Shown here piece after piece: positions 3,284 to 33,131 of a stretch of 64,000 bases of DNA. The notes beneath the pieces are model-generated. The model did no database searches and was not told where the DNA came from. It saw nothing but the letters and a program-made list of their open reading frames with translations. Origin of the DNA: Geobacteraceae bacterium (GTDB lineage Bacteria; Desulfobacterota; Desulfuromonadia; Geobacterales; Geobacteraceae); contig JAMPXD010000002.1 of assembly GCA_023701365.1 (NCBI GenBank), positions 1 through 64,000 of the forward strand. Direction: 5' to 3'. Position numbers and translations under genes: made by a program. The stretch's first letter is position 1. Each line of letters starts with the position of its first letter.

Positions 3284-3350
3284 AACCAACCGATCCCGTC
3301 GGCCTTGGGCTGTCATCCGATAATCCGCACAATAGCATCATCCGAAGCAA

Positions 3351-3397
3351 AAACGCCGTGAATCCATTAAAGCAAAAGGGTTCACGGCGTTTTGTTT
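3351..3397 (+). terminator. Rho-independent-like terminator after the PIN gene
   Basis: A perfect 12-bp stem (aaacgccgtgaa at 3351-3362 with ttcacggcgttt at 3381-3392) with an 18-base loop, followed by tgttt. It lies 67 bases after the toxin stop. Confidence 0.7.
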
Positions 3398-3790: not shown

Positions 3791-3807
3791 GAAGGCGCCT
3801 TATCTTG
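3674..3807 (+). repeat. VapC 3'-end duplication, copy B
   Basis: Direct repeat of 2336-2469. Similarity stops abruptly after tatcttg at 3807. The stop codon and the last two codons of the minus-strand lipoprotein gene (3800-5686) lie inside this copy, so the repeat boundary cuts into that gene. Confidence 0.85.
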
Positions 3808-5686: not shown

Positions 5687-5775
5687 ACCGCACAACCTCC
5701 TTTATCGAACTGCATCCGCATAAGATTGGAGATGGTTCATTGCATCTTAATCAGACCTTTGCCTGATGCTGAATA

Positions 5776-5928: not shown

Positions 5929-6852
5929 TCAGGAAACAACGTTTTCAAACCAGAGAATCAAATCGAACAGCGCAAACTGCACCGCCTGTACCGTGTAGCG
6001 GGTCGGCTTGCCCTGGCTGTCCTCGTCGATGGCGTGAATGCCGTCGGAGGAGACCTTGTAGATCATCTCGGAGAAGCGGTAGAGGGTGGAGCGGTAGTGG
6101 AGAAACACTTCACCCCGGTTCTGCTGGCTCTTCGGGTCGTAGCTCCCCTTCAGATGGTCGAGGATCTGGGCCAGGTTGACGCTCTGGATCTCGCTTTCCC
6201 CGTCCCGGTAGGTGATGAACCGGCGCGGCACCATGTCGGGCCGGCGCCGCTGGAGAACGATGTAGATCCGCTCTTGGATGGAGCGGAGATTCGCCAGGTT
6301 GCCCCTGATCCGGGGAAGGGAGGTCTCCTCCATGGTCCGCAGACAGTCGAGCAGCTCCTGGCGGGCATCCGGGCCGAGGTGCTCGTTGACGACCCGGAAC
6401 ACGTCCGGGTAGCGGCCGGCGATCCTGACCCACTCCAGCTCCAGGGCCTCCCCGCGCAGCCGGGCAAACATCTCCCCCTCGTCGCGCCCCTTCTTGTAGA
6501 CCCGCCAGATCCCGGAGAAGTCCTTCAGGTAGCGGTCGTAGAGGTGTTGCACCCCGGTGATCGCCGCGAGCGGCAGATGGGGCGCTCTTTCGGTGAAATA
6601 CTTGGTGGCCGCGATGATGAAGCTGGAATCGGGGGTCTCCTCGTCACGCCGCCGGTAGCACTCCACGTCGAGGATGACGCCGGCGATCTCGGCCCCCTTC
6701 TCCCCCTCCAGGATCTCCCTCCCCTCCTCAAGACTTGCGGCGTGGAGGAGGAAAATGCCGTGGCGCTGGGCATCCCTGAACAGGGCGTCCACGTAGCGCT
6801 CGTCATCGTCGATCATCAGCATCGTCAGTGCCATGGCAGCGTCGTTCTTCAT
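5929..6852 (-). CDS. Response regulator with unrecognised output domain
   Basis: A 307-residue protein. ATG 6852 overlaps the kinase stop as ATGA and is chosen over the longer open frame, which only shadows the kinase gene. Residues 10-130 form a receiver domain: the acidic triad DDD at 15-17, phospho-acceptor Asp62 in ILDVEC, Thr99 in AAITG and Lys120/121 in VYKKG. Residues 130-307 are mainly helical and match no DNA-binding or enzyme domain I know (no helix-turn-helix, GGDEF or HD motif). It is presumably phosphorylated by the upstream-encoded kinase. The output may be protein-protein binding. Confidence 0.8.
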   Translation of the reverse strand: MKNDAAMALTMLMIDDDERYVDALFRDAQRHGIFLLHAASLEEGREILEGEKGAEIAGVILDVECYRRRDEETPDSSFIIAATKYFTERAPHLPLAAITGVQHLYDRYLKDFSGIWRVYKKGRDEGEMFARLRGEALELEWVRIAGRYPDVFRVVNEHLGPDARQELLDCLRTMEETSLPRIRGNLANLRSIQERIYIVLQRRRPDMVPRRFITYRDGESEIQSVNLAQILDHLKGSYDPKSQQNRGEVFLHYRSTLYRFSEMIYKVSSDGIHAIDEDSQGKPTRYTVQAVQFALFDLILWFENVVS

Positions 6853-8144
6853 GTCAGCCGTCTCCTCGGCAGGGTGATCCGGAAGTGGACCGGGTCGTTG
6901 CCGATTTTCCGGAAGGCGCCGTGGTGCAGCTCGATGAACCGCGCCACCCATGCGCCGCCGAGCCCTTTGCCGGGGCTGTTCCTCCCCTTCCGGCCGAAGG
7001 CGAGGAAATCGGCGGTCCGCAGGCCCCGCGGGAATGGCATCCCGTTGTTGACGTAGTCGATGACAATCTCCTTCCCGGTCCGTCGCGCGCTGAAACGCAC
7101 CCGCAGCCCCTCCTCCCGGACAAAGCCGTCCGGGAAGCCGTGGACCTCGGCGTTCCGGAGGAGGTTTTTGATCGCCTGAACGAAGGAGGGGCGGTGCAGC
7201 CATACCTTTCCTGCCCCGGCGAAATCGGTCTCGATGGTAAATCTCGCCCCGCTGAACAGGGGGAGTATCTCCCGCTCGAACAGTGCGGCCAGCTCCACCT
7301 CGACGAAGTCTTTCTCCTCGATCCGGCCGGCGAACAGGTCCTCGGTGGTGTCGAGGATGTCCCTCATCTGGCCGAGGCTCACCACCGCCGCGTCGAGGGC
7401 GTCCCCGACCCGCTCGTCGCTCCCGTCGCGGCGCCGCCCGATGACCTCAGCCGCGGTCCCCCGCTTCCCCAGGTGCCCCTGCACGGCGAGGATCGGCGAA
7501 AGGGCGGTCCGGATCGTCGGGTTGAGGCTGTGGGTCAGGTGGCGGATGATGGCGAACCCGGTCTCCTGCCGCTCGGCGGCGAGCCTGGAGCGACGCCGCA
7601 GGAACCGCACGTGCAGGTAGTGGTCGAGGATGGCGCCAAGCGTTATCAGGACAATTACCGGAGCGGCGCTCAACGGGACCGGAAACAATAGAGGGCCGTT
7701 CAGATTGATGACGACAATCCCCGCGGCAAGGCCGAGATTGAGGAGCACCGCCAGCCGCAGCGACCTCACGAAGGTGCAGAGCGAAGCAGCCAGTGACACG
7801 GCAAGGAGGAGCGAGGCGATCGTTGGCAAGAGCGGCGCCTGAACGGTACGGCGTTCGAAAAGGAGGAGCTTGAGGTAGAGGAACGCGCGGATGCCGGCGT
7901 CGCTGATCCGGTCAGGAAGAGCGGTCTGGTCGAGGAAATAGACCGAGAAGGCGATCAGCAGCCCGCTCAGGATATTGGCGAAAAATACGCGGCGCCGGGT
8001 GAGGGAGAAGAGCTCCCGGCGCCTGCCGATGCAGGCGGCGAGAGCCTCCCGGTCGAAGCGGAGCCGCGGCGGCCTGCGGCTAAGCCGCAGAACCGCCGCG
8101 GCAAGGCGCCGCAGAGCCATACGCCAGGGTCGGTTCAGCTTCAC
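6849..8144 (-). CDS. Membrane sensor histidine kinase
   Basis: A 431-residue protein. Four hydrophobic segments lie at about 53-71, 104-124, 131-148 and 157-174, followed by a short linker (residues 175-195). The dimerisation region contains RHLTHSLNPT (candidate His202 or His205). The ATPase part has an N-box (QAIKNLLRNAEVHG) and a glycine lid (GKGLGGAWVARFIELHHG). It has no PAS, HAMP or large periplasmic domain, so the stimulus is probably sensed in or near the membrane. It starts 9 bases after the porin stop and overlaps the response regulator by 4 bases. It may monitor the envelope system encoded upstream. Confidence 0.85.
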   Translation of the reverse strand: MKLNRPWRMALRRLAAAVLRLSRRPPRLRFDREALAACIGRRRELFSLTRRRVFFANILSGLLIAFSVYFLDQTALPDRISDAGIRAFLYLKLLLFERRTVQAPLLPTIASLLLAVSLAASLCTFVRSLRLAVLLNLGLAAGIVVINLNGPLLFPVPLSAAPVIVLITLGAILDHYLHVRFLRRRSRLAAERQETGFAIIRHLTHSLNPTIRTALSPILAVQGHLGKRGTAAEVIGRRRDGSDERVGDALDAAVVSLGQMRDILDTTEDLFAGRIEEKDFVEVELAALFEREILPLFSGARFTIETDFAGAGKVWLHRPSFVQAIKNLLRNAEVHGFPDGFVREEGLRVRFSARRTGKEIVIDYVNNGMPFPRGLRTADFLAFGRKGRNSPGKGLGGAWVARFIELHHGAFRKIGNDPVHFRITLPRRRLT

Positions 8145-8153
8145 CCGCTACAC

Positions 8154-10016
8154 TCAGAACTTGGCGTTCAGGTTGAACTGGAAGACGTCAACGTCGAACG
8201 GCCCGGGAGTAAAAGTCCGGTCATTGATCTGGTTGGCGGTAAGCCACTTGGCCGAAAGCCAGAAATTTTTGTTCAGGCCCAGATCCCCGCCGACAATCCA
8301 TCCCTCGGCGTTAGTCCCCCCCAGGTGGAAATCGGAATCGGTAAACAGATCGACCACCGCGTCGGCCTCAAGACGCTTGTAGAAAAGGTAGGTCTTCCAC
8401 TGCCACGCGTCTTTCACCTGCTGGTGACCGACGGTTACTCCGAGCTGATACCCCTCGTTGTCGTTGCCGACACCGGAATCTCCCGAGAGCGTGAACACCT
8501 CATCCCGGTTGAAGCCGAGGTTATTGACATAGTCGCCCATAAAGACCAGGTGGACCGGGTCCCAGAATCCCAGGTCGAGCGCGGCCGTGACATTCAGCTC
8601 CTCGAACTTCGAGCCGAGCCCCGGGAAATGCGCTGTTCCGGCCAAATTCAGGTTGAAGACCGTGTTCCCCTTCTGCGTGTTGGTTACGTTTATCCCAAAT
8701 CCCGAAAAGTTATCCAGATCCGGGGTTTCGAATGGACGCCCCTGCATGTTCTCGAAACGGTAATAGGCAACGCCGAGCTTCATCCCCACATTTTCGTGCG
8801 GCCGGTATTCTCCGCCGATCTGGGCACCCCACAGCCACTTGTCGCGCTGGGAGAATTCAAGCTCCTCCAGCGGAAAGATCCCCGCCGTCAGGAACCCGCC
8901 GAGCGCATCGGTGATCTGGTGCGTGTAACTGGCGGCGACCCCTTCGAAGTTCAGATCCGGATCCCAAACGAGATCTGTGGCGAACCATGGACTCGGCAGC
9001 CTCCCTCCCCACAGGGTGAGTCCGGTGAGCGGCCTCCACCGGAGGTAGGCCAGATCGAGGACAAAACCGTCCTTGTTGAAGTAATCTCCCAAGGTATCAT
9101 TGGTTGAGACCGGGTCCTTCTCGTTGCCGGTCGCAAGGCGAATACCCGCCTCCACCTGATCGTTGACCTTTGCGTTCACCCCGAGACGCGCCCTGGTCCT
9201 GAGACGGTGTCGGTCGGCCAGGGTATTGATGAGGTCAAGGTTGTACGGGCTTTGATAGGTAGGGTTGTTGTTCTCGTCGAAAAACTCCCCCTGGTAGCGG
9301 AGCCGGATGTCCCCGGAGAGCTTGAAGCGGTTCAGCCATTCGGGGAGCTTGTCGGTCTTGCCCTGGATTTCGGAGAGCAGGGCAAACTTCTGGCCAATCC
9401 TGCGCCGCACGTCCTTCCCCACCTCGGCGGTGACGCCCTCGGCGAGCTGGTCGGCGGGGTGCTTCCTGCCGTATCGCTCGAACGCCTGCGCCGCCTCCCG
9501 GCGAGTCAGGACATGCTGGAGGGCGAGGAACCTGAGGCGGTCGCGCACCTCCTCGACCGGTACCGTCGTCATCCGGTATTCGATGTCGTCGGCACCGACC
9601 GCCGGCCGCTGCCGCTCCGGAACCAGTTCGCCGCGCACCTTCCGGCCCAACTCGTCCAGCCGCACCGCCAGCTCCACCTTCTCCTCCTCGCTGATGATCC
9701 CCTCCTCGCTGAGGATATCGAGGGCCTCGGCGGCCTCTTCCGGCGCAAAGGGAGCAGTCGGCAGTCCGGCCTCGGCAGCGGCGGTTTCATCCTCTTTCGC
9801 TGCCCCGGCCGACCCAGCGTCCTGGCTGAATTTTCTTCCCAGTTCCCGGGACTCCTCCGGGGTGATCACCTTCTTCTCCTCCAGGAGCCGGAGCAGCTCG
9901 CCGATGCCGGGCGCCGCCGCGGCCGGCGCAACTTCCTCCGCGCTGTACGCGGGAGCAATGCCGCCCAGCAGAGTGAGGACCGCCAAGCCGGCGATCATCG
10001 AACAACGAAACTTCAT
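8154..10016 (-). CDS. Putative outer-membrane porin (Porin_5-like)
   Basis: A 620-residue protein; ATG 10016 has ggagg six bases upstream. A cleavable signal peptide ends near AYSAEE. Residues about 40-210 are helical and acidic, likely a periplasmic coiled region. From KLSGDIRLRYQGEFF (about residue 233) to the C-terminal Phe (FQFNLNAKF) the sequence alternates like a large beta-barrel and ends in the Phe-terminated outer-membrane signature. This arrangement fits the putative porin family found in Geobacter-like bacteria. It lies 56 bases downstream of tonB, so it may be a partner or substrate channel of that motor. The transported substrate is unknown. Confidence 0.8.
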   Translation of the reverse strand: MKFRCSMIAGLAVLTLLGGIAPAYSAEEVAPAAAAPGIGELLRLLEEKKVITPEESRELGRKFSQDAGSAGAAKEDETAAAEAGLPTAPFAPEEAAEALDILSEEGIISEEEKVELAVRLDELGRKVRGELVPERQRPAVGADDIEYRMTTVPVEEVRDRLRFLALQHVLTRREAAQAFERYGRKHPADQLAEGVTAEVGKDVRRRIGQKFALLSEIQGKTDKLPEWLNRFKLSGDIRLRYQGEFFDENNNPTYQSPYNLDLINTLADRHRLRTRARLGVNAKVNDQVEAGIRLATGNEKDPVSTNDTLGDYFNKDGFVLDLAYLRWRPLTGLTLWGGRLPSPWFATDLVWDPDLNFEGVAASYTHQITDALGGFLTAGIFPLEELEFSQRDKWLWGAQIGGEYRPHENVGMKLGVAYYRFENMQGRPFETPDLDNFSGFGINVTNTQKGNTVFNLNLAGTAHFPGLGSKFEELNVTAALDLGFWDPVHLVFMGDYVNNLGFNRDEVFTLSGDSGVGNDNEGYQLGVTVGHQQVKDAWQWKTYLFYKRLEADAVVDLFTDSDFHLGGTNAEGWIVGGDLGLNKNFWLSAKWLTANQINDRTFTPGPFDVDVFQFNLNAKF

Positions 10017-10072
10017 ACAAACCTCCATATCGTTAACTCAAACCTCAAAACTCGTAACTCAAAACTTAAAAG

Positions 10073-10795
10073 TCACCCCTGTGAAGATATCTTTATCGTC
10101 ATCCCGCCGGGCATCCCGTCCGGCAGGGACTCGCTGACTCTCATCGCTACCAGCGCCGTTTTCAGCGCCTGGTCCATCCTGTCGCTCCCCGAAGGTCCGA
10201 CGATCCGCGAGCGGAGAATGGTGCCGTTGCCGCTCAGGACCAGGTGGACGGTTGCCTGGTGTTTCCCCTTGGGAAAGCCCCCATCCTGGTCGAGGATCGA
10301 CTTGACCCGCTGCCAGAGCTCCTTCTCGACCTTCTTCGTGTACCAGCCGTACTTGGCGAGAAGCCCGGCGTGGGAGAGCCCGCCGCCGCCCCCGCCGCCG
10401 AGGGTGATGCTCCTCCCCCCCTTCTTCCCGACCAGGCCGAATCCGTCGCTCCCCGCCCCCCCTTCGGCGTCGACCCCGAGGTCGCTGCCGGCAGGCGTGT
10501 TGTCCTGGGACTGGTCCGCCTGCTGGGGAGTGTCCTGGGGCTGGTCCATCGGGGCCTCCATCTGCTGGGGCTTGGGGATCTCCTTGAGCTGTTCCGGCTC
10601 GGGGAGTTTCTCCTTCACCTCCGGGGGCTTAAGGAGGGTGACCGTCGATACCTGGCTCTTCCGCCGCGGGCCGTCGTCGCTGAGAAAAACCTTGAGCACA
10701 AAGCCGGCGCCGCCGAGAAAGACCAGGCCGATAACCGCCGGGACGAGCCAGGTCTGATATGGATTCTTGTTTTTCTTTTTCTTCCGATCTGGCAT
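10073..10795 (-). CDS. TonB-family energy-transducing protein
   Basis: A 240-residue protein: a short basic cytosolic start, one membrane anchor (residues about 15-37, LVPAVIGLVFLGGAGFVL), a proline/glutamine-rich periplasmic spacer with PEPEQLKEIPKPQQ, a glycine run near residue 133, and a C-terminal TonB-like domain with YTKKVEKELWQRVK and VHLVLSGNGTI. TonB proteins carry proton-motive energy from ExbBD to the outer membrane. The ExbD gene lies just upstream. No TonB-dependent receptor is encoded anywhere in the window, so the recipient is unclear. Confidence 0.85.
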   Translation of the reverse strand: MPDRKKKKNKNPYQTWLVPAVIGLVFLGGAGFVLKVFLSDDGPRRKSQVSTVTLLKPPEVKEKLPEPEQLKEIPKPQQMEAPMDQPQDTPQQADQSQDNTPAGSDLGVDAEGGAGSDGFGLVGKKGGRSITLGGGGGGGLSHAGLLAKYGWYTKKVEKELWQRVKSILDQDGGFPKGKHQATVHLVLSGNGTILRSRIVGPSGSDRMDQALKTALVAMRVSESLPDGMPGGMTIKISSQG

Positions 10796-10902
10796 GGATA
10801 TTCTTGCACCTCGAACACTATTCAGGTTGATAGGCCGAAGACCGAAGGGATAACCCAGAACCTTCAGCCTTCAGCCTGCAGCCTTCAGCCTAAACCCCTT
10901 TG
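10796..10902. repeat. Degenerate short tandem repeat between exbD and tonB
   Basis: The spacer contains near-tandem copies of ccttcagc (about 10861-10891). A comparable run of aactcaaa/aactcgta units lies in the next spacer, 10034-10071. No gene or clear terminator is present. Confidence 0.5.
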
Positions 10903-11310
10903 TTATTTCACCAGCTTCTGCGTCACCAGCCCGAGCTGGGTGATCTCCAGTTTCTGGAGGATGTCCAGGACATCGATGATGCTCTTGTAGGAGATCTTCT
11001 CGTCCCCCCGCACCACCACGGGCAGACTGGGGTCCGACGCCTTGTACTGGCGCAGCCTCGTCTCCAGCTCGGCCAGGGTCACCGGAAAGCTGTCGAGGAA
11101 AACGGTCCCCTCAGCGGTGATGGTGATCGCCTTGGTGCTCGGCTTGATCTTGCTGGCAGCCGCGCTCGCCTTGGGGAGGTTGACGCTGATCCCCTGGACC
11201 GACGCCGTCACCACGATCATGAACACCACCAGGAGGTTCCAGGCCAGGTCGAGCATCGGCACCACGTTGATCTCGACTACCTCGTCATGGTCGTCTGCCG
11301 GCGCTTTCAT
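10903..11310 (-). CDS. ExbD/TolR-family motor subunit
   Basis: A 135-residue protein with one N-terminal membrane helix containing VVPMLDLAWNLLVVFMIV. The Asp in PMLD is the proton-carrying residue of ExbD/TolR. The rest is the periplasmic domain, with VVVRGDEKISYKSIIDVLD as in TolR. Its start overlaps the ExbB-fusion stop by 4 bases, so the two subunits are translationally coupled. With TonB it forms a proton-driven inner-membrane motor. Confidence 0.9.
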   Translation of the reverse strand: MKAPADDHDEVVEINVVPMLDLAWNLLVVFMIVVTASVQGISVNLPKASAAASKIKPSTKAITITAEGTVFLDSFPVTLAELETRLRQYKASDPSLPVVVRGDEKISYKSIIDVLDILQKLEITQLGLVTQKLVK

Positions 11311-13082: not shown

Positions 13083-13114
13083 CTTCGTCATTCCCTCCAT
13101 CCGTATATGCTGTC

Positions 13115-19100: not shown

Positions 19101-22100
19101 GTATCCCAGAACTGACCATCATAGGTGCCGTAGCGGACCTTCTCCTCGCCGCGCGTGGCGGTGACGCTCTCCTCCGTCAAGTAGAGACGTCCCACAGCGT
19201 CGTCTTCCTTGTCCGCGTCAGCCCTGAGCGTTATGACGCCGACAGGCGCCAGCAGCGTGCCGTCGTGAAGCAGCGACCCCCCCGCCTCAACCGTGAGGCT
19301 TCCGCCCGCCGAGTCGATCATCCCCGACACCGGCCGCTCCGATCTGCTGATGGTTACGTTGCCTCCCGCCGTGATGGTGAAATCCGTGGGGACGTAACCG
19401 CCATTGTCAGCTTTCTCCTCATGCATGGCCGGATAGATGCGCCCGGCGGACAGGGTAAGATCGCCGGCGGTTTTGAGGGAGCCGCTCCAGTCGATCTTGT
19501 CATTTTCCTCCAGGATCCCCGCGTACCGGCGGTCGAAGAGCCGCATATCATCAATCTTCGCGACATCCACCAAGGCGGCGCCTGAAATGACGATATCGCC
19601 GTCGATGTCGAGGAAGCCGCCACGATCCCCCCCCTCCAGGCGGAGCGTCCCCTCTCCCGCCGATTCGGTACGGTAGGACGGAATGTGGCTGTTCATGAGC
19701 CGCAGCCAGGGGGCCTTCAGCGTCACGGTATCGGCGCCGCCGAGGACGAACTCCGGCGTGTCGAGGGTGATCCTGCGGCCGGCCGCAATGCCGGTGGCAT
19801 CCGCGAAGATGATGGAGTGGTCGGCCGCGAAGGTCAGGTCGTCGAAACCGGCCGCGACGACCTTCTGCAGGTCCGCATCGAACAGCGTCATCCCTTCGGC
19901 TGACCTCACTTTATTATCGTCATCGAGCTTTCTGGTGAGGGAAAAGGTCCCACCGGCAAGGCCCGCGACGCTGTCGTCGCCCTTGGCCAGGAACGTGGCG
20001 GCAAAGGGGTTCGCCACCGCCGTTTCCAGGCCGCTGTTGTCCCGGTATTTGAGTTCCACGGAACCGGGAGAGCCGGCAACGGTCTGGGCAACGACCCTCC
20101 ACGTCGAGTTCTTGAAGTAAGATGTCGTCGCCGAAGCGCCGGAAACGTCCAGGAGTGCCCCCTCCTCCACGGCAACGGCATAGCCGTCCATCTTGATGGT
20201 TCCGCCGTTCAGGGGGGTAGCGCCCAGTGCATAGCCGGGAGCGATGATTTTCAGGTCCGGCCTGTTGAAGCCGCGGGCAAGCAGGCGGCTGGTATCGCGA
20301 AGGAGGATGCTTGAGTCCGCCAGGTTCGGTGTCGTAAGGGTGATGGTGCCCGCTGGGGCACTCACGGTTCCGGCGACGTCGACCGTGTTCCCGTACAGCG
20401 ACACCGCGCCGCCGGGTGCGGCGGAAACGGTCGCGTTCCGCTGGACTGTCAGCGTGGAGATCAGGTCTGTGGGTTTGTGTTCGCTGTCGTTCCAGTCAAA
20501 CGCTATTCCGGCGGCGAGGTTGACCGCGGTGGCCCCGACCAGGTTGTCCGCCGCCTCGATCAGCGCCAGCCGCCCGAGGCCGCCGGGAACCGGCTGCTGA
20601 TAACGGGTTCGAGACGGGCTCAAAACAACATCACCGGCAACATCCAGGTCGCCGACACCGCTCTTGAGGGTGATGGAGCTGAACCCGGTTGCAGCAAAAG
20701 CCGCGTCATCGAGCACCAGCTTCTCTTCCGCAGCACCCGAGACAGCGGCCGGGTCGCTCACCACCGCGACCTCATCGGCATGGAGCGTGATGCTCCCCCC
20801 CTTCTTGCCGGCAAGGGCGTATCCGGCCAGGGTCCCGTCAAGTTTTATGGTGCTTCCCTGAACAGTCAGGCTCCCGGCGTCGCCTCCGGTCACCTTCTTT
20901 TGCTCATCGATCAGGATTCCGCCGCTCACATCCACCCGTGACCCGGCACCGAGCTCGACCCCTGCGCCTTCCAGGGTGTTGTCCTTGAGCGTGACGGTAC
21001 CCCCTGTGAGATGGGGTGCCCGCGCCTCGGGATTTGAGGCATCCTTCCCCAGGGGGGTGCGGTCAAACTTCTGGCCGGCCACCGATATGGAGCTCCCTTC
21101 GCCAAGGACGATCCCGGAGGTTATCTCGGTGTGACGGCTGTCGGAGGCCAACGAGGTGATGGTATCGTAGTTGAGCAGGGAAACGGTCCCCCCCGCAGCC
21201 TCTATTGAGCCATCGTGCTCGATGCGGCGGCCCGATACCACGACCGAACCGGCCGGAGCGACGCGCAGACGTGCATCACCTTCGATCCGGACCGTATCGT
21301 TGGCATAAAGCCTCACGTCCCCCAGACCTGCAGCGTTTAGCGCCTCCGAGGAAATATACGACACGTCCGCCATAAGGTCCTGCGGCAACAGCGACGTAAC
21401 AGTGATGGCGCGCGTGACGAAATCCATGCCTGACGGTATCTGGACTGAATCGATCTTCTTCCCGAGCTCGACGCTGCCTGCCCGCGGCTCGGCCCGCCCG
21501 CGGGCCTTGCGGGTCCCGGTATCGTTGAGGGGGTCGGCCGCCATGGTCTGGAAGACCCCCCTTTGGACCGAGCCGTCCAGGGTGCCCGCCACGGCGAACT
21601 GCCGGGCCGCGATGGTGAGGCTCCCCGCGTCGGCCCCCTCCACGTGGGCGGGCCGGCTGATGTCGCGGGTGACCACCGCGTCGTAGGTCAGGTAGCGGGG
21701 GGCCGAGGCTATGTCGTATATCTTGGTGCCCGACTTGAGATAGCTGATCTTGTTCGACCCCGCCGCGAAGCTGCTCCCCCCACCGGCAAAACCGAGAAAT
21801 GCCCCGTCCTGCACGGTGACGTCGCCGTTGGCGAGGTCGCTGGCATAGAGGGAGACGGTCCCCCCCTTCACCGCCCGCTCCCGGGCGGTCACCAGGGGGG
21901 CCAGGTAGCTGGAAACGTCGCCGATGTTGCAGCCCAGATTGGCATCGAAGTAGATCTTCTCCCCCTTCAGAAACCCGTACTTCTGGATCTGCTCGTCCTT
22001 CAGGTTGTCGGAAGTGAATTCGAAGCTTATCTGGTTCACATCGGCAGGCCGGTTTTCGAGCCAGAGGCCGCTCACGTCGATGCTGCTTTCGCTCCCCAGG

Positions 22101-23410
22101 TAGACCCGGTTCTTGGCGCCCATCAGGACCGTCCCCGCCGGAGCATCGATTTTTCCGTCCACCTCGATCAGGTCCACATCGACCGAGCGTTGGTCCAAAA
22201 GAGCCGGGTCGGACGGTATGGCGCCCGCCGGCGCGAGACCGCTCACCACCAGCTTACCCCCGGTGAAGCTGTAGGCGCTCAGCGTGTCGTCCACGGTCTG
22301 GGACGAGTCGGAGATGGGCATCCGGATGACGCTGTCCTTCTCCAGCGCCACCAGGTCGCTGGCCAGCAGCTCCACCAGCCCCTGCTTGGTTGCCGTGGTT
22401 TCGGAGATGATCGCCCCCTGGTTTCTGACGCTCTTGCCGTACATCCCCACCGTGCCGGCAACGGTGGCAAGGGTGCCGCTGGTGAAGTTGGTGACTGTGC
22501 CGGGGTTGACCAGCCCGCCGACCACGTACTGGCGGACCGGCAACTCCGTGCTGCGCCCCTGTTCCGTCAGAATGTCCCCCTCCAGCTTCAGCATGACTTC
22601 GTCGGCGGCCACGAGACCTATCTGACCGGTCGGGACAAGGGGCGGATCGGTGGGTTGGCGTTGGATGGCAGGGTCTTCGCCGATGGCGCCGCTGTTCTCT
22701 ACGCTGGTACCGATCAGGTACACCACGCCGCCCGAAGCGGTCGCGATGACACCCTCGTTGGAGACGCCGCCATTCCACTCCTCGACCGGCTCCTGAACAG
22801 TCGTGTCGGTCTGGCCGCCCTGGGTCCGGGCGAAATTGAGGACGTTGTTGGTAAAATTGTCGTTGGTGATGTCCAGCGAGGAGGCAAAGAGCGAATGGGT
22901 GTTGACCCTGGCGGTCGGAGAAAAGAGGATGCCGTTCCGGTTGATGAGATAGACCTTGCCGTCTGCCTTGATAGTGCCGAATATCTTGCTCGGTGAGCTG
23001 GTATCCAGGACCCTGTTCAGGACAGACCAGTCTCTGTTTCCCTGCTGGTTGAACCAGACCGTGGCCTGCTCGCCGACATTGAAGGTGTTCCAGTCGATGA
23101 TCGCTTTGTCGGCGGTCTGGTTAACCGTCATCTCGTTGCCCAGAGTGACCGGCCTGTCGGCATTTATCAGGGTGTTCCCTTCCTTCCAGACCGGCAGGGC
23201 GTTGAGCGCGGGAGCGGTCACGCTCCGGCCGGTCAGGGCGGGGAGAACCCGCGCACTGGCAGGCATGACCCCCCTGGAGAGCTGGAGAGCCCCTGCCTTC
23301 GGAACACTGCGGGAGAGGCTCTCGGCATTGGCGATAACCGGCGCCAGCGCCGTCGACAGCGACACGCAGAACGCCAGGGATTTATGTATCAGACTGTGTT
23401 GCTTTCCCAT
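13115..23410 (-). CDS. Giant TpsA filamentous haemagglutinin-like adhesin (two-partner secretion)
   Basis: A 3431-residue exoprotein. Residues 1-29 are a signal peptide (ALAPVIANA). Residues about 75-340 are the TPS secretion domain, with DKAIIDWNTFNVG, VWFNQQG, LNRVLDTSSPSKIFG and the hallmark LINRNGILFSP at 155-164. Most of the rest is parallel beta-helix: hundreds of short turns of the type GGTVTL, GGSLTVEA and GSIEAAGGTVSLL. There is no C-terminal barrel, so export depends on a TpsB. The C-terminus is short, charged and contains GGKDKGTGG. The matching TpsB gene lies 21 bases upstream. It is probably surface-held or released for attachment and biofilm roles; the ligand is unknown. The gene is intact, with no frameshift. 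Confidence 0.93.
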   Translation of the reverse strand: MGKQHSLIHKSLAFCVSLSTALAPVIANAESLSRSVPKAGALQLSRGVMPASARVLPALTGRSVTAPALNALPVWKEGNTLINADRPVTLGNEMTVNQTADKAIIDWNTFNVGEQATVWFNQQGNRDWSVLNRVLDTSSPSKIFGTIKADGKVYLINRNGILFSPTARVNTHSLFASSLDITNDNFTNNVLNFARTQGGQTDTTVQEPVEEWNGGVSNEGVIATASGGVVYLIGTSVENSGAIGEDPAIQRQPTDPPLVPTGQIGLVAADEVMLKLEGDILTEQGRSTELPVRQYVVGGLVNPGTVTNFTSGTLATVAGTVGMYGKSVRNQGAIISETTATKQGLVELLASDLVALEKDSVIRMPISDSSQTVDDTLSAYSFTGGKLVVSGLAPAGAIPSDPALLDQRSVDVDLIEVDGKIDAPAGTVLMGAKNRVYLGSESSIDVSGLWLENRPADVNQISFEFTSDNLKDEQIQKYGFLKGEKIYFDANLGCNIGDVSSYLAPLVTARERAVKGGTVSLYASDLANGDVTVQDGAFLGFAGGGSSFAAGSNKISYLKSGTKIYDIASAPRYLTYDAVVTRDISRPAHVEGADAGSLTIAARQFAVAGTLDGSVQRGVFQTMAADPLNDTGTRKARGRAEPRAGSVELGKKIDSVQIPSGMDFVTRAITVTSLLPQDLMADVSYISSEALNAAGLGDVRLYANDTVRIEGDARLRVAPAGSVVVSGRRIEHDGSIEAAGGTVSLLNYDTITSLASDSRHTEITSGIVLGEGSSISVAGQKFDRTPLGKDASNPEARAPHLTGGTVTLKDNTLEGAGVELGAGSRVDVSGGILIDEQKKVTGGDAGSLTVQGSTIKLDGTLAGYALAGKKGGSITLHADEVAVVSDPAAVSGAAEEKLVLDDAAFAATGFSSITLKSGVGDLDVAGDVVLSPSRTRYQQPVPGGLGRLALIEAADNLVGATAVNLAAGIAFDWNDSEHKPTDLISTLTVQRNATVSAAPGGAVSLYGNTVDVAGTVSAPAGTITLTTPNLADSSILLRDTSRLLARGFNRPDLKIIAPGYALGATPLNGGTIKMDGYAVAVEEGALLDVSGASATTSYFKNSTWRVVAQTVAGSPGSVELKYRDNSGLETAVANPFAATFLAKGDDSVAGLAGGTFSLTRKLDDDNKVRSAEGMTLFDADLQKVVAAGFDDLTFAADHSIIFADATGIAAGRRITLDTPEFVLGGADTVTLKAPWLRLMNSHIPSYRTESAGEGTLRLEGGDRGGFLDIDGDIVISGAALVDVAKIDDMRLFDRRYAGILEENDKIDWSGSLKTAGDLTLSAGRIYPAMHEEKADNGGYVPTDFTITAGGNVTISRSERPVSGMIDSAGGSLTVEAGGSLLHDGTLLAPVGVITLRADADKEDDAVGRLYLTEESVTATRGEEKVRYGTYDGQFWDTVDKEVDNSAREDRIEVIDAPEKKIAMEATEVIVRPGALMDQAGGGELFAYQFMTGMEGSFNPIAPASGNLVILPSSLMSLPGRQIYLAENGAVPAGYYTIVPEQYAFHPSAYVVKSLGKPVASTDRLLSAEGYQVAGGYLTEAGTGVSSPQLTGYSVRKASDVLKEGNFIFPDSEPLVAGNGGTLSVTGDTVLLEGNLNTTPLDGYRGGGIDLSALNVAVRKAAEPLPASFNFQTPLDDTYQGWLYLTEDFINQGNFNSVKLGDVQTETVSIEDNSRLTAGSFSFEAKKQGGPSISVGQNAEIHASKELGDGTVAFVTPTSATDGGTTVIGAGATVKGDTDVTLRTGSLQNDGVIDADGGTLTYSSEIITFNADGSIPSGPGIHLTDSGWKGKKSGETNPDGTVKAVEGTPETVVLEAREIAFAGDRNLATAGDVVFDAERVTGADLDGSGAIVKVAARSVTLRGGGTSDSSGALDDTGGSLTVEADDIAVVGKGSFSIIDPKSNEYTNVGGKLRFDGFNDIRLDSVRDIVFSGIGSIQTDGNLTMATGAVEHEVADGTAPGGKITVRDNSRVTAAYRKEAGVPFTPADFIVNAAGVATIARSGRVEQLETKANDSVGGSLEIKGSSVNQQGELSVNGGAVSLVATGSRDNDGVFLAKGSLTAARGTDHSSGGTVKLTADNKTVNVAAEAVVDISAGTQGDAGELVISAVNGKAELKGDLKGNAAGGRGGSLVIDAASVDSSAGIAKATTDGGFDESVDVRLRNQEELTVAAGETIKARHVLMSVDQGSLTVKGTVDASHVAGGGTVELYAKNNMTVDNGGIVRADAMKADGTAADKGSTIELGSTDGRVVVVKREVADDGVVVNAGGTVSVAGGKTVHDTIRQKMDDNGNLQFYDNGKPVMETLREELTGGTVTLRSALYDADGNRVTDLKTGKLGVDLNGTVTGAKEIIAYAVDKTSATSSAEWTKTAGYIMENAAAKTKDITDALGEKANIFQFRPEVEVSSATSLTHGTALDLSSQSVGRLTIRAGNDLKIEQKIADARTAMSSLYVATAAPSWDIGLVAGADTTAANPYAVRKGTGNLTVGNTSNKVSAHVYTESGRIRFASGGDTTIQTSTDSKYQRPGYMIDSSMNYTMGTYQGAISGKVGGKLAINKDAAIQSALGSIAVTTGKDLVNSGAIRTAGERPKDIPLNIWTTDEGIPLNNYWKYAGGGPISLRVGGSYDDGTGKPDLRSWDSVNGQTGSGLREWAASYKNTLTEKAIEGVAAMAGGDVTVRTGKRFEGQIGAFGAGDLRVEAGGDLSGRFLLRDGTGTLRTAGNILPVKNTLTNINEPGYQVIEAFKGDITVDAEGEVVLGAIVNPTLANKNDAFTKWNVTYDQSTSVAVNARHGNASLKGISSYGNNSKPLTGNSQLILPPNLSIEAAGDISIGAQFAMAPSKTGNLRLVAGGSVLGEPAKAGDPAGIIVSDADPAAVFPGKEPKYIGNSLDTAANLYTMLTTSDKPEFHASRPVHEEDTAPVEVRAEGGDIRHLTLMLPKRGVITAEGDIYDLYFKGQNISDDDVTVITAGGNLELPMKRDSDNAKTGIELGGPGALLLRTGGSVDLGTSKGVRTVGNTVNQALDRDGADIVIVAGIDPSIPLNDPGNDATPAQATASAGELQRIEEQSRQDVANAASFLEALKEPSIRISEAIADGDLDEMNRVAEETRAAIINPTLAPADPKSADGNPAGGVSLTSSEITTQDNGSIRIIALGDLDVGRTVNADDATSTGITTQFGGTISTYSTGDVNVNESRIMTFFGGDILSWSDFGNLFAGRGSRTIISAAPPRSVPLHNDPDDKTKITGYETVFPAPAAGSGYRSVTYDPDGDSGPQTPPAYGDIYLAAPEGIIDAGEAGVSGGRVFVGAQTVLNAQNIFSVSGQSVGVPSTSSLSIGSLSGSGTMTESGKMFEQASAAAGGKDKGTGGATEDSNPFATSWLDVKVISFDTEKQEEEREKQ

Positions 23411-23431
23411 GATTCAATCCCTCTAATTTTA

Positions 23432-25048
23432 TCAGAACTGCCCGTTCACCATGAAATGGAGCCGGTTGTCCCCCTTTTCGATCCGGTCGGAATCGGCTAG
23501 GGCGAAAGCCAGTGCCACCTCGTATCCCAGATGCCCGAAGAGCGTACCTCGCACCCCGATGCCGGTCCCCTGGAGGGTCCGGTTGCGGGTTTCCTCGGGA
23601 AGCGGCTTCCTGAGCCAGAGAGATGCCACATCGTAGAAAAGGTAGGGGGTCAGCTGGAACGAATCTCCCGGTTTGATGCTCGGGGCCGCCAGCTCGACCG
23701 AGGCATGGGCCGCGTTGTCGCCCAGGGCCTCGCTCTCCTTGTATCCCCGCACGCTCTCCATGCCGCCGCCCGCGTACTGCTCGTTGGCGACGAGAGGCTC
23801 GCTCGCCAGCTGGCCGTCTGCCCGGACCTTCGCTTCCATCCCGAAGGAGAGCTTCTGCTGCCGCTCCACTCCCAAGACGCCGGTGAGGAAGTTCCCCTTC
23901 GCCTCACCCCGCTTGTTAACCATGTCAATCTGGTCTGTCACCGCGCCGCGGAACGCCATGGAGAGGCCGGCGTTGAAGATGGTCAGGCCGGAGGAATCCG
24001 CAAGCGAGGCGTCATAGCCGAGCGAAAACGGGAGGTAGCTCACCTCGGTGGTGAAGCCGGCTGTCTCCCGGAATTTCTTGTAGTCGACGCCGAGGGTCAC
24101 GCTGTGGTTGTAATCCCCCGCCTTGGGGAGCGGCATCAGGTAGCGGCCGCCGGCAATGAACCCCCGGCCGATGGTCTGGATGTCCCCCACCGCCGCAATG
24201 GTGTCGGTGTCAGACCAGACCCCGTAGAAAACGATCCGCCGGTCGTCGTGCCACGGGTCGGGGAGGACGTAGGAGCCTGAGAGGACCTGCACCTCGCTCG
24301 GCTTCTCGGGTGAGGTCTGGTACTGGACCCCCACCGAATGCTCCCGCTGCCAGAGGTTGTCGTAGCGGAGCGCGGCGTTCAGCCTGAGCTCGGTGGTGTC
24401 GTGGCTCGCCCGGTTGTTCAGCTCCAGGCTGCCGTGGAGCGGGAACCGGTCCTCCACCTTCAGCTCCACCTCCACCGTGCCGGCCTCCTTCGACGGCGCG
24501 AGCCCCGGCGTGATCCGCAGGTCGGGGTTCCGGTTGGCCCTGGCGAACTCCTCGGTGATGGTCGGCACGTGGGGAATCTGCCCCTCAGCCAGGGACGGGA
24601 ATAACTGCCGGACCGTCTCCTCGGGGAAATGGCGGAGCCCGGCCACCTTCTCCGCGCCGATCCGCTGCTCGATCACCTGGAGGTAGACGAAGCCCCCCTC
24701 CACCGACTGCTCGGGGATGTTGACGATGACCGTCGGGTAGCCCCGGTCATGATGGAACTTTTCCAGCCGCTCGCGCGCCTGTTCCACGGCGGCCGCGGTC
24801 CGGCCGTCGCCGCGCAGATCGTCCAGCAGCTCCCGCAGCTCGTCCCGGGGAAAGACCGTGTTGCCGGAGATCACGAAACGCCTGATGGGAAAGGTCACTT
24901 CCTTCTGGCCGGCGGCAACGGCACTCTCTTCAGCGGCAGAAGCCGTGGTGAGCGCCAGGTTCAGCAGGAAGAGTACCAAGAAGATTACGAAAAGCAGCCA
25001 GTGCAGGGTGCTCTGTTTCCTGAAGAGACGGGGATTTCCAGTTGCCAT
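23432..25048 (-). CDS. TpsB outer-membrane transporter (FhaC/ShlB family)
   Basis: A 538-residue protein with a signal/anchor segment (LLFVIFLVLFLLNLALTTASAA). Residues about 50-125 form the first POTRA domain (PIRRFVISGNTVFPRDEL ... VIVNIPEQSVEGGFVYLQVIEQ). A second POTRA region follows, up to DRFPLHGSLELNNRAS. The C-terminal 300 residues are a 16-strand-type barrel with the conserved VRGY loop motif (GGGMESVRGYKES) and a terminal Phe. It moves the adjacent giant adhesin across the outer membrane. Gene order tpsB-tpsA with a 21-base gap is standard for the pair. Confidence 0.93.
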   Translation of the reverse strand: MATGNPRLFRKQSTLHWLLFVIFLVLFLLNLALTTASAAEESAVAAGQKEVTFPIRRFVISGNTVFPRDELRELLDDLRGDGRTAAAVEQARERLEKFHHDRGYPTVIVNIPEQSVEGGFVYLQVIEQRIGAEKVAGLRHFPEETVRQLFPSLAEGQIPHVPTITEEFARANRNPDLRITPGLAPSKEAGTVEVELKVEDRFPLHGSLELNNRASHDTTELRLNAALRYDNLWQREHSVGVQYQTSPEKPSEVQVLSGSYVLPDPWHDDRRIVFYGVWSDTDTIAAVGDIQTIGRGFIAGGRYLMPLPKAGDYNHSVTLGVDYKKFRETAGFTTEVSYLPFSLGYDASLADSSGLTIFNAGLSMAFRGAVTDQIDMVNKRGEAKGNFLTGVLGVERQQKLSFGMEAKVRADGQLASEPLVANEQYAGGGMESVRGYKESEALGDNAAHASVELAAPSIKPGDSFQLTPYLFYDVASLWLRKPLPEETRNRTLQGTGIGVRGTLFGHLGYEVALAFALADSDRIEKGDNRLHFMVNGQF

Positions 25049-25078
25049 GCTGATTCATTTCACCTTTCTCGGGGTCCG

Positions 25079-26347
25079 CTACGACTGCGCCAATACTTTC
25101 TTCAATGTTTCGGCAAGCGCAGCGCCGTCGCGGAAACCGTCCATTTTCCCGGCCACGCTACCGTCGGCATTGAGGAGCAGCACCAGGGGGAAGCCCGACT
25201 GGCCATAGCGGGCCTTGTATTCCTTCTGCCTGTCCGAATTGACCTTCACCCATACGAACCGGTCACGCAGGTTCTTGACCCTGGGATCTTCCAGGCTTTC
25301 GCTGAAGAGCTTCCGGCACCAGTTGCACCAGTCGGCGTAGAGGACCAGCACCGCCGGCCTGTTCTCCCTGCGGGCAGCGGCAAGCCCCGCATCATGGTCC
25401 TCCTGCCAGGGCAGGGTCACCATCCTCAGCCTCGATCCCTTGGTGAGCGAGACGACTTCCAGGTCGAGGAGAAGGTCCCTTCCCGCCAGCGGGTGGTTGA
25501 AATCGACCGTGAAGGTGTCGTTGTCCACGACGGCAACCCGCCCCTCCCGGGACTCGACCTCGAACCGGGCGCCGCTGCGCGGCGAGAGGGTGAGGTTCAC
25601 CTTCTCCCCATCGACCCCGACGGTGACGGAGCCGAAGCTCTCCTCGAAGCGCTCGCCGTCCCTGGCGACCATCTCCAGCTTCACGTCGCGCTCGCCGACC
25701 TCGGCGACCCGCCCGGCCACGTAGGGGGAGAGCCGCACCTCTTTCCCCGGCGAGGGGAATCCCTCGAAATGTTGCACGTACTCTGCGGCGCTGAGGCGGA
25801 TGGTGCGGGGCATGGATTTGATCCGCGGAAAGGTGACCCTCTTTGCCGGGTCGATGGGACCGTACCCCTTGTCGGCGGAGATCTTCACCCGCTTCTTCCC
25901 GCCCGCGGCCATCCCGGCCAGCGCGTCCCCGATCCCCGGCGGCTCCGATGGCGCGCCGGCCACGACTTCGACCGGGGCGAACCCCTGCTGCTCCCGGTAA
26001 GCCTCGCTCTTTTTGCGGCCCTTGTCACTGGCGGCCTCCGCGAAGGTCGTCCCGACGAGAGAGCCGTCCTCCAAGGTGAGGACGTAGTTGACCTGCACCA
26101 GGTCTCCCGGCTGCACCCGCGCCGGGTCCTCGTCGAGATCGATGCTCACAGCCTTGCCGCCGTTCTCACCGGCCTCCCTGACGGCATCCTCGAGGCGCTT
26201 CCGGACCTCGGCAAGGCCCGGCTTATCGGAAGCTCCCGCAGGGGGCTGGCAACAGGGCTTTCCGTCCTCCGCACGGGAGTGCGGCGCGGCGGAAAGAAGA
26301 AGAGCGGCGACGAGCAGTGACAAGATGAATGGTTTTTTCGAAAGCAT
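25079..26347 (-). CDS. Periplasmic FKBP-type prolyl isomerase fused to a thioredoxin domain
   Basis: A 422-residue protein. The signal peptide ends near APHSRAEDG, followed by CC. Residues about 80-180 are FKBP-like (VQPGDLVQVNYVLTLEDGSLVGTT, DALAGMAAGGKKRVKI). Residues about 200-300 resemble the SlyD flap and end with the hallmark DFNHPLAGRDLLLDLEVV. Residues about 312-422 form a thioredoxin fold with YADWCNWCRK (CxxC) and cis-Pro in SGFPLVLLLN. One chain thus offers proline isomerisation and disulfide chemistry. It lies 30 bases before tpsB, so a role in keeping the adhesin or motor parts foldable in the periplasm is a reasonable inference. Confidence 0.85.
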   Translation of the reverse strand: MLSKKPFILSLLVAALLLSAAPHSRAEDGKPCCQPPAGASDKPGLAEVRKRLEDAVREAGENGGKAVSIDLDEDPARVQPGDLVQVNYVLTLEDGSLVGTTFAEAASDKGRKKSEAYREQQGFAPVEVVAGAPSEPPGIGDALAGMAAGGKKRVKISADKGYGPIDPAKRVTFPRIKSMPRTIRLSAAEYVQHFEGFPSPGKEVRLSPYVAGRVAEVGERDVKLEMVARDGERFEESFGSVTVGVDGEKVNLTLSPRSGARFEVESREGRVAVVDNDTFTVDFNHPLAGRDLLLDLEVVSLTKGSRLRMVTLPWQEDHDAGLAAARRENRPAVLVLYADWCNWCRKLFSESLEDPRVKNLRDRFVWVKVNSDRQKEYKARYGQSGFPLVLLLNADGSVAGKMDGFRDGAALAETLKKVLAQS

Positions 26348-26407
26348 GGTATTCCTTTCCTGCTTTGTAACTGATCAGGTTGATGTGCTGCTGAAGACGT
26401 CCAGCCA

Positions 26408-26494
26408 CATAACCCCTCCCAGCCTCCCCTTAACTTAAGGGGAGGAGGATTACATTCCCCCTCTTAAGCTAAGAGGGGGTGAGGGGGAGTTATG
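26408..26494. repeat. Composite palindromic repeat between the two FKBP genes
   Basis: Two strong hairpins lie side by side: cctccccttaa/ttaaggggagg (26423-26445, 11-bp stem, 1-base loop) and ccccctctta/taagaggggg (26457-26479, 10-bp stem, loop agc). Outer arms (cataacccctccc and gagggggagttatg) pair around both. The right arm covers the stop codon of the upstream FKBP gene. It may act as a transcript stabiliser or partial terminator inside the cluster. Confidence 0.8.
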
Positions 26495-27338
26495 GCCTGG
26501 TCGGTTCTGAATGGTCACCCTGCTTTAAGGGTTCGACAGCCTCCACCTCCACCTCGCAGGAAAGCGTCTCACCGCCGAACCGGTAGCCATAATCGATGGT
26601 GAAGTCACGCTCGCTCACCTCGCTGATCCGCCCGACAAGGGGGCCGGACCTGACCAGCAGCCCCACTTGGGCATCTATCTCTATCTCGTAGCGGTCCCCG
26701 GCGTCCCGCACCTTCCCCGGGCCGAATGGGGTCTGGATCTCCCCCCCCTCGGGAAGGGGGAAGCTGATGACCGCCTCCTGTTCGCTCACCGCCGTCACTT
26801 GGCCGGGGAAGGCGGGGTCTATGACAAAGCGCCGTCCGACCTCCGGCTCCCGGCCGGTCTTGGCGGCGTATTCCTCCCGGGAAAGCCTCATCTCCTTCGG
26901 TCTTTTCCTGACCCTGGCCATCCGGAGAAACCTCTCGTTCCCGGCAAGCCCGGCGACCGCTTCACCCTTGAGCTCCACCCTTTTCTTCTCCCCGACCGAC
27001 ATCCCCGGCAGCGCCGGGGCCAGGCCGGCCGCGATATCGTCTTCAAAACCGGGTCCTCCCGGGTTTGCGGCCGGCGCGACCCCCGCCTCCAGGGAAAGCG
27101 GGACGGCTCCCTTGCGCGCCATGAACAGCGCCGACTTCGGCACGGACGGGTCGGCGGCGGCGTCTTTCCCCGTGGTCGCCGCCAGCTCGCCGTTCGGAAG
27201 ACGGCAACTGTACCCGACCCGGACCCGGTCGCCGACGCCGACGCCGACGGTCCGGCGTTCGGCAGTCGCCGCGCAACCGGTGGCCACCGTCACGAGAAGA
27301 ATCGCCATGCATTTATATATGTGTGTCGAATGTCCCAT
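26490..27338 (-). CDS. FKBP-like lipoprotein, first gene of the secretion cluster
   Basis: A 282-residue protein from ATG 27338, chosen because ggaggagaataggg lies directly upstream; the open frame extends 24 codons further without support. A lipoprotein signal is present (ILLVTVATGC). Residues about 40-140 match the first FKBP part of the neighbouring fusion (VGVGDRVRVGYSCRLPNGELAATT, PALPGMSVGEKKRV). Residues about 165-275 match its SlyD-like part, but the NHPLAG motif is degraded to YRFGGETL, so isomerase activity is doubtful. It is likely a membrane-anchored chaperone paralogue. It heads the minus-strand cluster, with no gene upstream on that strand for over 3 kb. Confidence 0.75.
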   Translation of the reverse strand: MGHSTHIYKCMAILLVTVATGCAATAERRTVGVGVGDRVRVGYSCRLPNGELAATTGKDAAADPSVPKSALFMARKGAVPLSLEAGVAPAANPGGPGFEDDIAAGLAPALPGMSVGEKKRVELKGEAVAGLAGNERFLRMARVRKRPKEMRLSREEYAAKTGREPEVGRRFVIDPAFPGQVTAVSEQEAVISFPLPEGGEIQTPFGPGKVRDAGDRYEIEIDAQVGLLVRSGPLVGRISEVSERDFTIDYGYRFGGETLSCEVEVEAVEPLKQGDHSEPTRP

Positions 27339-27667
27339 CCCTATTCTCCTCCCTCCGGTTCCCATCGGCGTGGCATAACCTAACAGGTATTTGTTACATC
27401 TGCTTGTCATGCAGGATGCAATTTCAAAAAATATTTATTCATCAAACTTTTTACTGGTTGTAATGGAGATGAAACAATCGCCTGATACAGTCGCACCCGG
27501 TTCATGGCGAGGGAGTTTACCTGGCGGGCCGAAATTTAACCAAATATTCAGAGAACCTTAACACGGAAGTAGCAATAGGGTGCTAGCATCCCCAACCGTA
27601 GTTTGCAGGAGAGCGAAGTCCCGGCACGGCAATCCGGTCAAACCGGCCGGGACTCACCGGAAGCGAC
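27339..27667. other. Divergent intergenic region
   Basis: About 330 bases separate the minus-strand cluster from the plus-strand small gene. An AT-rich block (27420-27475) probably holds promoters for one or both sides, but no convincing -35/-10 pair could be fixed. A hairpin gtcccgg/ccgggac (27618-27624 with 27647-27653), with an inner ccggt-caa-accgg stem, lies just before the small gene. Confidence 0.4.
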
Positions 27668-28904: not shown

Positions 28905-28983
28905 CATCTTGAGGGATTTGTTCGCACATCCCCCGGCTGCGCCGGGGGAAACCATCAACCCTAATATCAAAGGAGACTGTATC

Positions 28984-30285: not shown

Positions 30286-30313
30286 TCTGGTCTTAAATTC
30301 GCTGCAATCAGGT

Positions 30314-30342: not shown

Positions 30343-30367
30343 CCTTTCATGGAGCATGGAGACAATC

Positions 30368-33130: not shown

Positions 33131-33131
33131 G

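What the first reader, a model, noticed from the sequence alone, without database searches (positions are those of the whole stretch)
5929..27338. Two-partner adhesin secretion locus with its own TonB motor, chaperones and two-component system
Ten minus-strand genes with small gaps or overlaps encode FKBP lipoprotein, FKBP-Trx, TpsB, TpsA, ExbB fusion, ExbD, TonB, porin, kinase and regulator. TPS systems are known to need only TpsA and TpsB and no energy source at the outer membrane. A dedicated proton-driven motor in the same transcript suggests an energised step: adhesin release, retraction, surface movement or sensing. I know of no described system of this composition.
Basis: partly seen in the sequence, partly recalled or inferred. 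Interest (0 to 1): 0.78.

Follow-up and report, generated by a model that had tools for sequence, protein, structure and literature searches.

The report
Giant adhesin export locus with motor
A relative of Geobacter carries one gene block for making, exporting and probably mechanically handling a giant surface protein with its own proton-driven motor; the same kind of block is already known, though barely studied, in Pseudomonas aeruginosa, and it turns out to be widespread and inseparable from one particular type of surface protein.

Summary
Ten collinear minus-strand genes (5929-27410) encode two FKBP-like proteins, TpsB, a 3431-aa TpsA, an ExbB with a periplasmic DUF2341-LamG extension, ExbD, TonB, a Porin_5 protein, a kinase and a regulator. 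It is not chance: 11 of 57 relatives carry the core in the same order. However, "no described system of this composition" is wrong. Pseudomonas aeruginosa has pdtA and, in one transcript, phdA-pdtB-exbB2-exbD2-tonB4-porin-PA0697-YbjN-PPIase; its TonB system was called uncharacterised in 2020. Pseudomonas relatives reproduce that order, and an ExbB checked there has the same fusion.

What I add: in about 646 genomes, the TpsA C-terminal domain DUF3739 and the fused ExbB occur in exactly the same 24. TpsA proteins of the other type live without this motor. DUF3739 TpsAs end in a disordered linker and a conserved short strand motif that loosely resembles a TonB box but does not meet the classical pattern. 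The two-component genes are accessory: adjacent in 3 loci, co-inherited in 9 of 12.

Best reading: a Pdt-type two-partner secretion system whose motor pulls on the retained C-terminus of the giant adhesin, or on its transporter. The linkage is shown; the mechanism is inferred.

The parts
26490..27410 (-). lipoprotein with an FKBP-like domain; putative periplasmic chaperone (start may be 27338)
   Evidence: lipobox TVATGC; FKBP_C sub-threshold; homologous to next gene and syntenic in relatives
25079..26347 (-). FKBP-thioredoxin fusion with signal peptide; putative folding factor
   Evidence: Pfam FKBP_C 8.4e-08, Thioredoxin_7 5.4e-12
23432..25048 (-). TpsB outer-membrane transporter (POTRA + ShlB barrel)
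   Evidence: short pre-POTRA segment in the family
13115..23410 (-). TpsA, 3431-aa filamentous-haemagglutinin-type exoprotein
   Evidence: TPS domain (residues 89-342) and DUF3739 (3235-3360)
13331..13708 (-). DUF3739, closing part of the TpsA beta-helix; exact co-occurrence with the motor
   Evidence: AlphaFold model
13151..13180 (-). C-terminal short motif WLDVKVISFD after a disordered linker (TonB-box-like, hypothesis)
   Evidence: 57/59 DUF3739 tails carry the motif against 1.8% of shuffled tails
11307..13091 (-). ExbB/TolQ-like proton channel subunit with N-terminal periplasmic DUF2341 + LamG domains
10903..11310 (-). ExbD/TolR subunit with the conserved membrane Asp (VPMLDLAWN)
10073..10795 (-). 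TonB-family energy transducer (membrane helix, about 110-residue linker, TonB_2 domain)
8154..10028 (-). Porin_5: 16-strand barrel with an N-terminal helical periplasmic stalk
6849..8144 (-). membrane sensor histidine kinase (accessory)
   Evidence: adjacency in 3 of 12 loci
5929..6855 (-). receiver-like regulator (accessory), output domain unknown
   Evidence: homologues in 9/12 locus genomes and 1/46 others

Best explanation
This is a Pdt-type two-partner secretion locus. SHOWN (by sequence and co-occurrence): TpsB and a giant DUF3739-type TpsA travel with a dedicated ExbB(DUF2341-LamG)/ExbD/TonB motor and a stalked porin. INFERRED: the two FKBP-like proteins keep TpsA competent in the periplasm; TpsB threads it out N-terminus first; the end of the beta-helix (DUF3739) and the flexible C-terminal tail stay on the periplasmic side, as the FhaB prodomain does. 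TonB, driven by proton flow through ExbB/ExbD, engages that tail (or the TpsB POTRA domains) and pulls or pushes, so that completion, retention or release of the adhesin is energised and controllable. The LamG/DUF2341 heads on the ExbB oligomer bind glycan, peptidoglycan or the substrate, and the porin's stalk links the outer membrane to the machine. Odds: family identity about 0.95; motor functionally dedicated to this TpsA about 0.9; motor acting directly on the TpsA tail or TpsB about 0.45. The confidence below is for the whole statement including the mechanism.
For: DUF3739 and the ExbB fusion occur in the same 12/58, 5/297 and 9/299 genomes, with none discordant. TPS domains occur in 25/58 of the same genomes, 13 of which lack both DUF3739 and the motor, so the link is to this TpsA type and not to TPS in general. 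In 80 named genomes ExbD is next to ExbB in 80, TonB in 77 and porin in 76, with TpsB or TpsA beside them in nearly all. Catalytic residues are kept: ExbB GTV and AxxT threonines are invariant, and ExbD has the PMLD/PLVD aspartate. The TpsA C-terminus is modelled as a beta-helix, then a disordered linker (pLDDT about 40), then a conserved strand motif in 57/59 tails against 1.8% in shuffles, absent from five complete motorless TpsA tails. [quoted passage not shown] PopC export needs ExbB/ExbD/TonB (PMC6434023).
Against: TPS export has been reconstituted in vitro without added energy (stated in PMC5422565). The TpsA tail motif does not meet the classical TonB-box pattern as I recall it (0/59 full, 19/59 core) and could equally be a POTRA-binding or folding element. 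No TonB partner site was recognised in TpsB. Single transposon mutants in P. aeruginosa tpsA, tpsB, tonB4 or PA0696 gave no zebrafish virulence phenotype (PMC2729926), so no energised step has been seen. The comparison with motorless TpsA tails is small (n = 5).
Confidence: 0.45

Rival explanations
1. Scavenging and import: TpsA is a surface or released capture protein (as HxuA is for haem), and the motor energises uptake of what it catches through the locus porin or another receptor; the locus serves nutrient acquisition.
For: HxuABC couples a TPS protein to a TonB-dependent receptor (PMC5422565); the P. aeruginosa relative is induced by phosphate starvation (PMC4971064); a porin gene lies with TonB in 76 of 80 loci.
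Against: The porin is modelled with 16 strands and no plug, nearest to OmpM1, not as a 22-strand TonB-dependent receptor; no TonB-dependent receptor gene was recognised among the genes of the locus; import would not explain the exact tie to one C-terminal domain of TpsA.
Confidence: 0.2
2. Envelope coupling: a Tol-like motor braces or remodels the outer membrane-peptidoglycan link around the secretion site, through the stalked porin and the lectin-like ExbB heads, without touching TpsA.
For: The ExbB part scores nearer to TolQ than to ExbB (113 v 74 bits; 1e-33 v 8e-23); ExbD nearer to TolR; porin resembles the outer-membrane attachment porin OmpM1.
Against: The motor never appears without a DUF3739 TpsA in the genomes sampled, which a general envelope function would not predict.
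Confidence: 0.2
3. Signalling: the motor and TonB relay the state of the adhesin to the regulators (a kinase pair here, VreA/VreI/VreR-like elsewhere).
For: VreAIR-like genes next to TpsB in many relatives, VreA-like proteins with STN and TonB-like domains; the kinase/regulator pair is co-inherited.
Against: Regulators differ between lineages and are often absent next to the locus while the motor is constant.
Confidence: 0.1
4. Surface movement: the motor drags the long adhesin as in gliding (GldLM or Agl-like).
Against: No gliding or type 9 secretion genes recognised in the locus or among annotated recurrent neighbours; no motility role described in the papers found.
Confidence: 0.05

Closest known systems
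Pseudomonas aeruginosa PdtA/PdtB with ExbB2-ExbD2-TonB4 and PA0696-PA0699 (PUMA3/VreI regulon)
   Same: TPS pair, ExbB-ExbD-TonB, putative porin, a peptidyl-prolyl isomerase, one promoter for phdA-pdtB-exbB2D2-tonB4-PA0696..0701 (PMC4971064, PMC7035377). Pseudomonas chlororaphis and fluorescens loci show that gene order; P. chlororaphis has the DUF2341-LamG-ExbB fusion and DUF3739.
   Different: Here TpsA sits between TpsB and ExbB; chaperones are FKBP-like (one with thioredoxin) instead of PpiC-type; a histidine kinase and regulator replace VreAIR; no PA0697/YbjN genes in the block.
Bordetella FhaB/FhaC
   Same: Giant beta-helical TpsA with TPS domain; C-terminal part retained in the periplasm as a control element (PMC8263021).
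   Different: No motor genes reported as part of it in the sources read; whether its C-terminal region has DUF3739 was not tested here.
Haemophilus HxuA/HxuB/HxuC
   Same: TPS operon tied to the TonB machinery (PMC5422565).
   Different: There TonB energises a dedicated haem receptor, HxuC; no such receptor was recognised here and the motor itself is in the locus.
Myxococcus Oar/PopC secretion
   Same: ExbB/ExbD/TonB powers export across the outer membrane (PMC6434023).
   Different: Exporter is a TonB-dependent receptor, not a TpsB; substrate is a protease, not a giant adhesin.
TolQ-TolR / ExbB-ExbD motors
   Same: Channel subunits and key residues.
   Different: About 390-residue periplasmic DUF2341-LamG extension on the ExbB subunit; DUF2341 extensions on such subunits are noted as of unknown function in PMC12505986.

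Membership tests
Two-partner secretion (type Vb) | TpsA with N-terminal TPS domain and TpsB with POTRA + ShlB/FhaC barrel, adjacent | tested here: met
Two-partner secretion (type Vb) | secretion needs no energy source beyond TpsB | not testable with these tools
   needs mutants; locus composition argues for an energised step somewhere
Pdt-type TPS (P. aeruginosa PdtAB-ExbB2D2-TonB4) | TpsB/TpsA linked to ExbB-ExbD-TonB-porin in this order | tested here: met
   window and relatives; Pseudomonas loci; gene list in PMC7035377
Pdt-type TPS (P. aeruginosa PdtAB-ExbB2D2-TonB4) | DUF2341-LamG-ExbB fusion and DUF3739 TpsA, as in a Pseudomonas member | tested here: met
   window; P. chlororaphis; P. 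aeruginosa itself was not among the fetched genomes
Pdt-type TPS (P. aeruginosa PdtAB-ExbB2D2-TonB4) | PpiC isomerase, YbjN, PA0697 and VreAIR genes in the block | tested here: not met
   not in the window block, which has FKBP-like proteins and a kinase/regulator pair instead, hence 'variant'. These genes also vary among the other relatives, so they are not strictly defining.
TonB-ExbB-ExbD energy transducer | conserved channel Thr residues, ExbD Asp, TonB C-terminal domain | tested here: met
TonB-dependent receptor (for the porin) | 22-strand barrel with plug and TonB box | tested here: not met
   16 strands, no plug in the model; best fold match OmpM1
TonB box (for the TpsA tail motif) | classical pattern [DENF][ST][LIVMF][LIVSTEQ]Vx[AGP][STANEQPK] (recalled from memory) | tested here: not met
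   0/59 full pattern, 19/59 inner six positions

The most novel reading that the evidence does not exclude
A distinct, widespread branch of type V secretion is powered: DUF3739-type TpsA proteins carry a C-terminal handle on a flexible linker that TonB grips, so a proton-driven ExbB(lectin)-ExbD-TonB motor works directly on the exported protein, contrary to the rule that type V secretion uses no energy source.
Probability: 0.3. Interest if true: 0.88.

Novelty: new variant of a known kind. Interest (0 to 1): 0.6.

Why it matters
Type V secretion is taught as needing no energy source at the outer membrane. Here a whole class of TPS systems, spread over several bacterial phyla, never occurs without its own proton motor in the genomes sampled, and the class can be recognised by one domain (DUF3739). 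That turns an unexplained P. aeruginosa gene list into a testable rule, points to one specific contact (TonB to the TpsA tail or TpsB) to look for, and offers non-pathogenic hosts to test it in.

Tried and rejected
(1) A FhaC-like plug helix missing from TpsB as a mark of motor-linked systems: motor-linked TpsBs have short pre-POTRA segments, but so do some motorless ones, so not discriminating. (2) A TonB box in TpsB: none recognised. (3) The porin as a TonB-dependent receptor: rejected by the model. (4) Strict TonB box in the TpsA tail: 0/59. (5) PDB fold match for the TpsA C-terminus: none with E below 0.1. (6) ORF 28894-30369 on the minus strand as a recurrent neighbour: probably a low-complexity artefact opposite a plus-strand ORF. 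(7) Fetching P. aeruginosa itself: not among the 80 loci returned; its gene list is taken from papers and its fusion inferred from other Pseudomonas.
Full report
CHECK OF THE OBSERVATION. The first gene has a lipobox and is similar to the second, but its FKBP match is below threshold; the 'regulator' matches no Pfam family but begins like a receiver. The ExbB subunit most likely starts at 13091 with a signal peptide and carries DUF2341 and a LamG/ConA-like domain ahead of its first membrane helix. Its channel part scores nearer to TolQ than to ExbB. Gaps are short (142, 30, 21, 23, -4, 107, 44, 9, -7). Apart from the TpsA body, the genes were scanned and no minus-strand promoter-like site was seen, so one transcript is plausible but not tested.

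IS IT MORE THAN CHANCE. Among 58 genomes of the same family and order, the window's included, 12 encode the full-length ExbB fusion. In the 11 others the locus runs TpsA-ExbB-ExbD-TonB-porin, with TpsB and one or two FKBP-like genes upstream where the contig or fetched stretch reaches (some stretches end early, and TpsB was not found by homology in one otherwise complete locus, G045). ExbD is 81-96% identical to the window's, TpsA only 30-39%: the motor is conserved, the adhesin diversifies. A wider sample gave three further phylum members, two of them with the same order over the whole locus.

WHERE ELSE. Within the stretches held around ExbB they carry ExbD (80/80), TonB (77), the porin (76), a PA0697-like gene (69), TpsB (54), YbjN (45), a PpiC-type isomerase (44; Pfam) and, in 17-23, VreA/VreI/VreR-like genes. 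Plasmids of Methylosinus, Klebsiella, Cupriavidus, Burkholderia, Variovorax and Aquabacterium carry it too.

THE KNOWN RELATIVE. In P. aeruginosa one promoter drives phdA, pdtB, exbB2, exbD2, tonB4 and PA0696-PA0701, and another drives pdtA (PMC4971064). [quoted passage not shown] The Pseudomonas loci fetched here show the same order, and the P. chlororaphis ExbB has DUF2341 and LamG. The window locus is therefore a variant of this kind and not a system without precedent. P. aeruginosa itself was not fetched; that it has the fusion is inference. The 2017 TPS review does not mention ExbB at all, and no paper in the library mentions DUF3739.

THE NEW RULE. DUF3739 (the end of TpsA) and the fused ExbB are present together or absent together: 12 of 58 relatives, 5 of 297 phylum members, 9 of 299 Pseudomonadota. 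After removal of shared genomes that is 24 of about 646, with no discordant genome; one of the nine (G638) shows only the C-terminal part of the ExbB fusion, at a contig edge. Fisher tests on the single samples give 1e-12, 5e-11 and 2e-17, ignoring shared ancestry. TPS domains occur in 25 of the 58 relatives, 13 of them with neither DUF3739 nor the motor. So the motor goes with this TpsA type, not with TPS in general. Caveat: the protein search scores only the best few candidates in each genome. In the relatives, DUF3739 TpsAs are also longer (median 3394 against 1970 residues, p = 0.005; some of the latter are cut by contig ends).

THE TAIL. The last 452 residues of TpsA were modelled with 32 sequences (pLDDT 80): beta-helix, a three-helix insert, DUF3739 as the closing turns, then a disordered linker and a conserved decapeptide, WLDVKVISFD in the window. 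It is found in 57 of 59 tails against 1.8% of shuffled tails (the pattern was drawn up after looking at the tails, so the figure measures conservation and is not an independent test); the other two have close variants. It is absent from the five complete motorless tails seen. A short strand motif on a flexible linker is how TonB boxes are built, but the classical pattern (recalled, PROSITE PS00430) is not met (0/59; inner six positions 19/59). It could equally bind a POTRA domain. I treat TonB engagement of this tail as a hypothesis.

THE PORIN. The model has 16 strands after a helical periplasmic region (the helical part is of low to moderate confidence) and matches best the outer-membrane attachment porin OmpM1 (E 5.6e-16). 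It is not a plugged TonB-dependent receptor, which lowers the nutrient-import reading and suggests a structural link to the cell wall.

THE TWO-COMPONENT PAIR. Adjacent in 3 of 12 loci (window, G002, G039), but present somewhere in 9 of the 12 locus genomes against 1 of 46 others (Fisher 2e-07), and checked as a kinase-regulator pair in the six non-adjacent cases. It is a co-inherited regulator, not core.

MECHANISM. Shown: composition, order, co-occurrence, intact motor residues. Inferred: TpsB exports TpsA; its C-terminus is retained as in FhaB (PMC8263021); TonB does work on the tail or on TpsB. Export across the outer membrane powered by ExbB/ExbD/TonB has a precedent in PopC (PMC6434023). 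Against: TPS translocation runs in vitro without added energy (PMC5422565), so the motor may serve retention, release or turnover rather than translocation itself; and single P. aeruginosa mutants had no zebrafish virulence phenotype (PMC2729926).

VERDICT. Observation confirmed; functional coupling strongly supported; novelty claim corrected (known, uncharacterised relative); mechanism open and now testable.

Noticed in passing
window 38281-44523, + strand: Four or five overlapping plus-strand genes with an MksE match (4.5e-31) and weak JetC and JetD matches: an Mks/Wadjet-like SMC system, possibly anti-plasmid defence.
   Followed up: partly
window 31529-38073, + strand: DUF4062 + HATPase_c_4 (AlbA-like) protein followed by a 1506-aa protein with weak STAND NTPase/HEAT matches and a PDC-M54A (candidate defence) match: looks like part of a defence island beside the adhesin locus.
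   Followed up: partly
window 28179-28904, + strand: Secreted protein with a PEP-CTERM-like tail; homologues near many of the related adhesin loci, though the family seems repeated around these genomes.
   Followed up: partly
L050 and L049 (Klebsiella plasmids): The Pdt-type locus sits on large Klebsiella plasmids; the L050 plasmid is typed as conjugative and has two giant TpsA genes, VreAIR-like regulators and arsenic resistance genes nearby.
   Followed up: no
L052:19697-20513: Aquabacterium plasmid locus has two successive ExbD genes behind the ExbB fusion.
   Followed up: no
L084: Paraburkholderia MAG locus with several broken DUF3739 TpsA ends in tandem upstream of TpsB, perhaps a store of silent TpsA C-termini.
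   Followed up: no
window 3800-5695, - strand: Lipoprotein-like gene downstream of the regulator with no firm family; no homologue found next to the related loci examined.
   Followed up: partly
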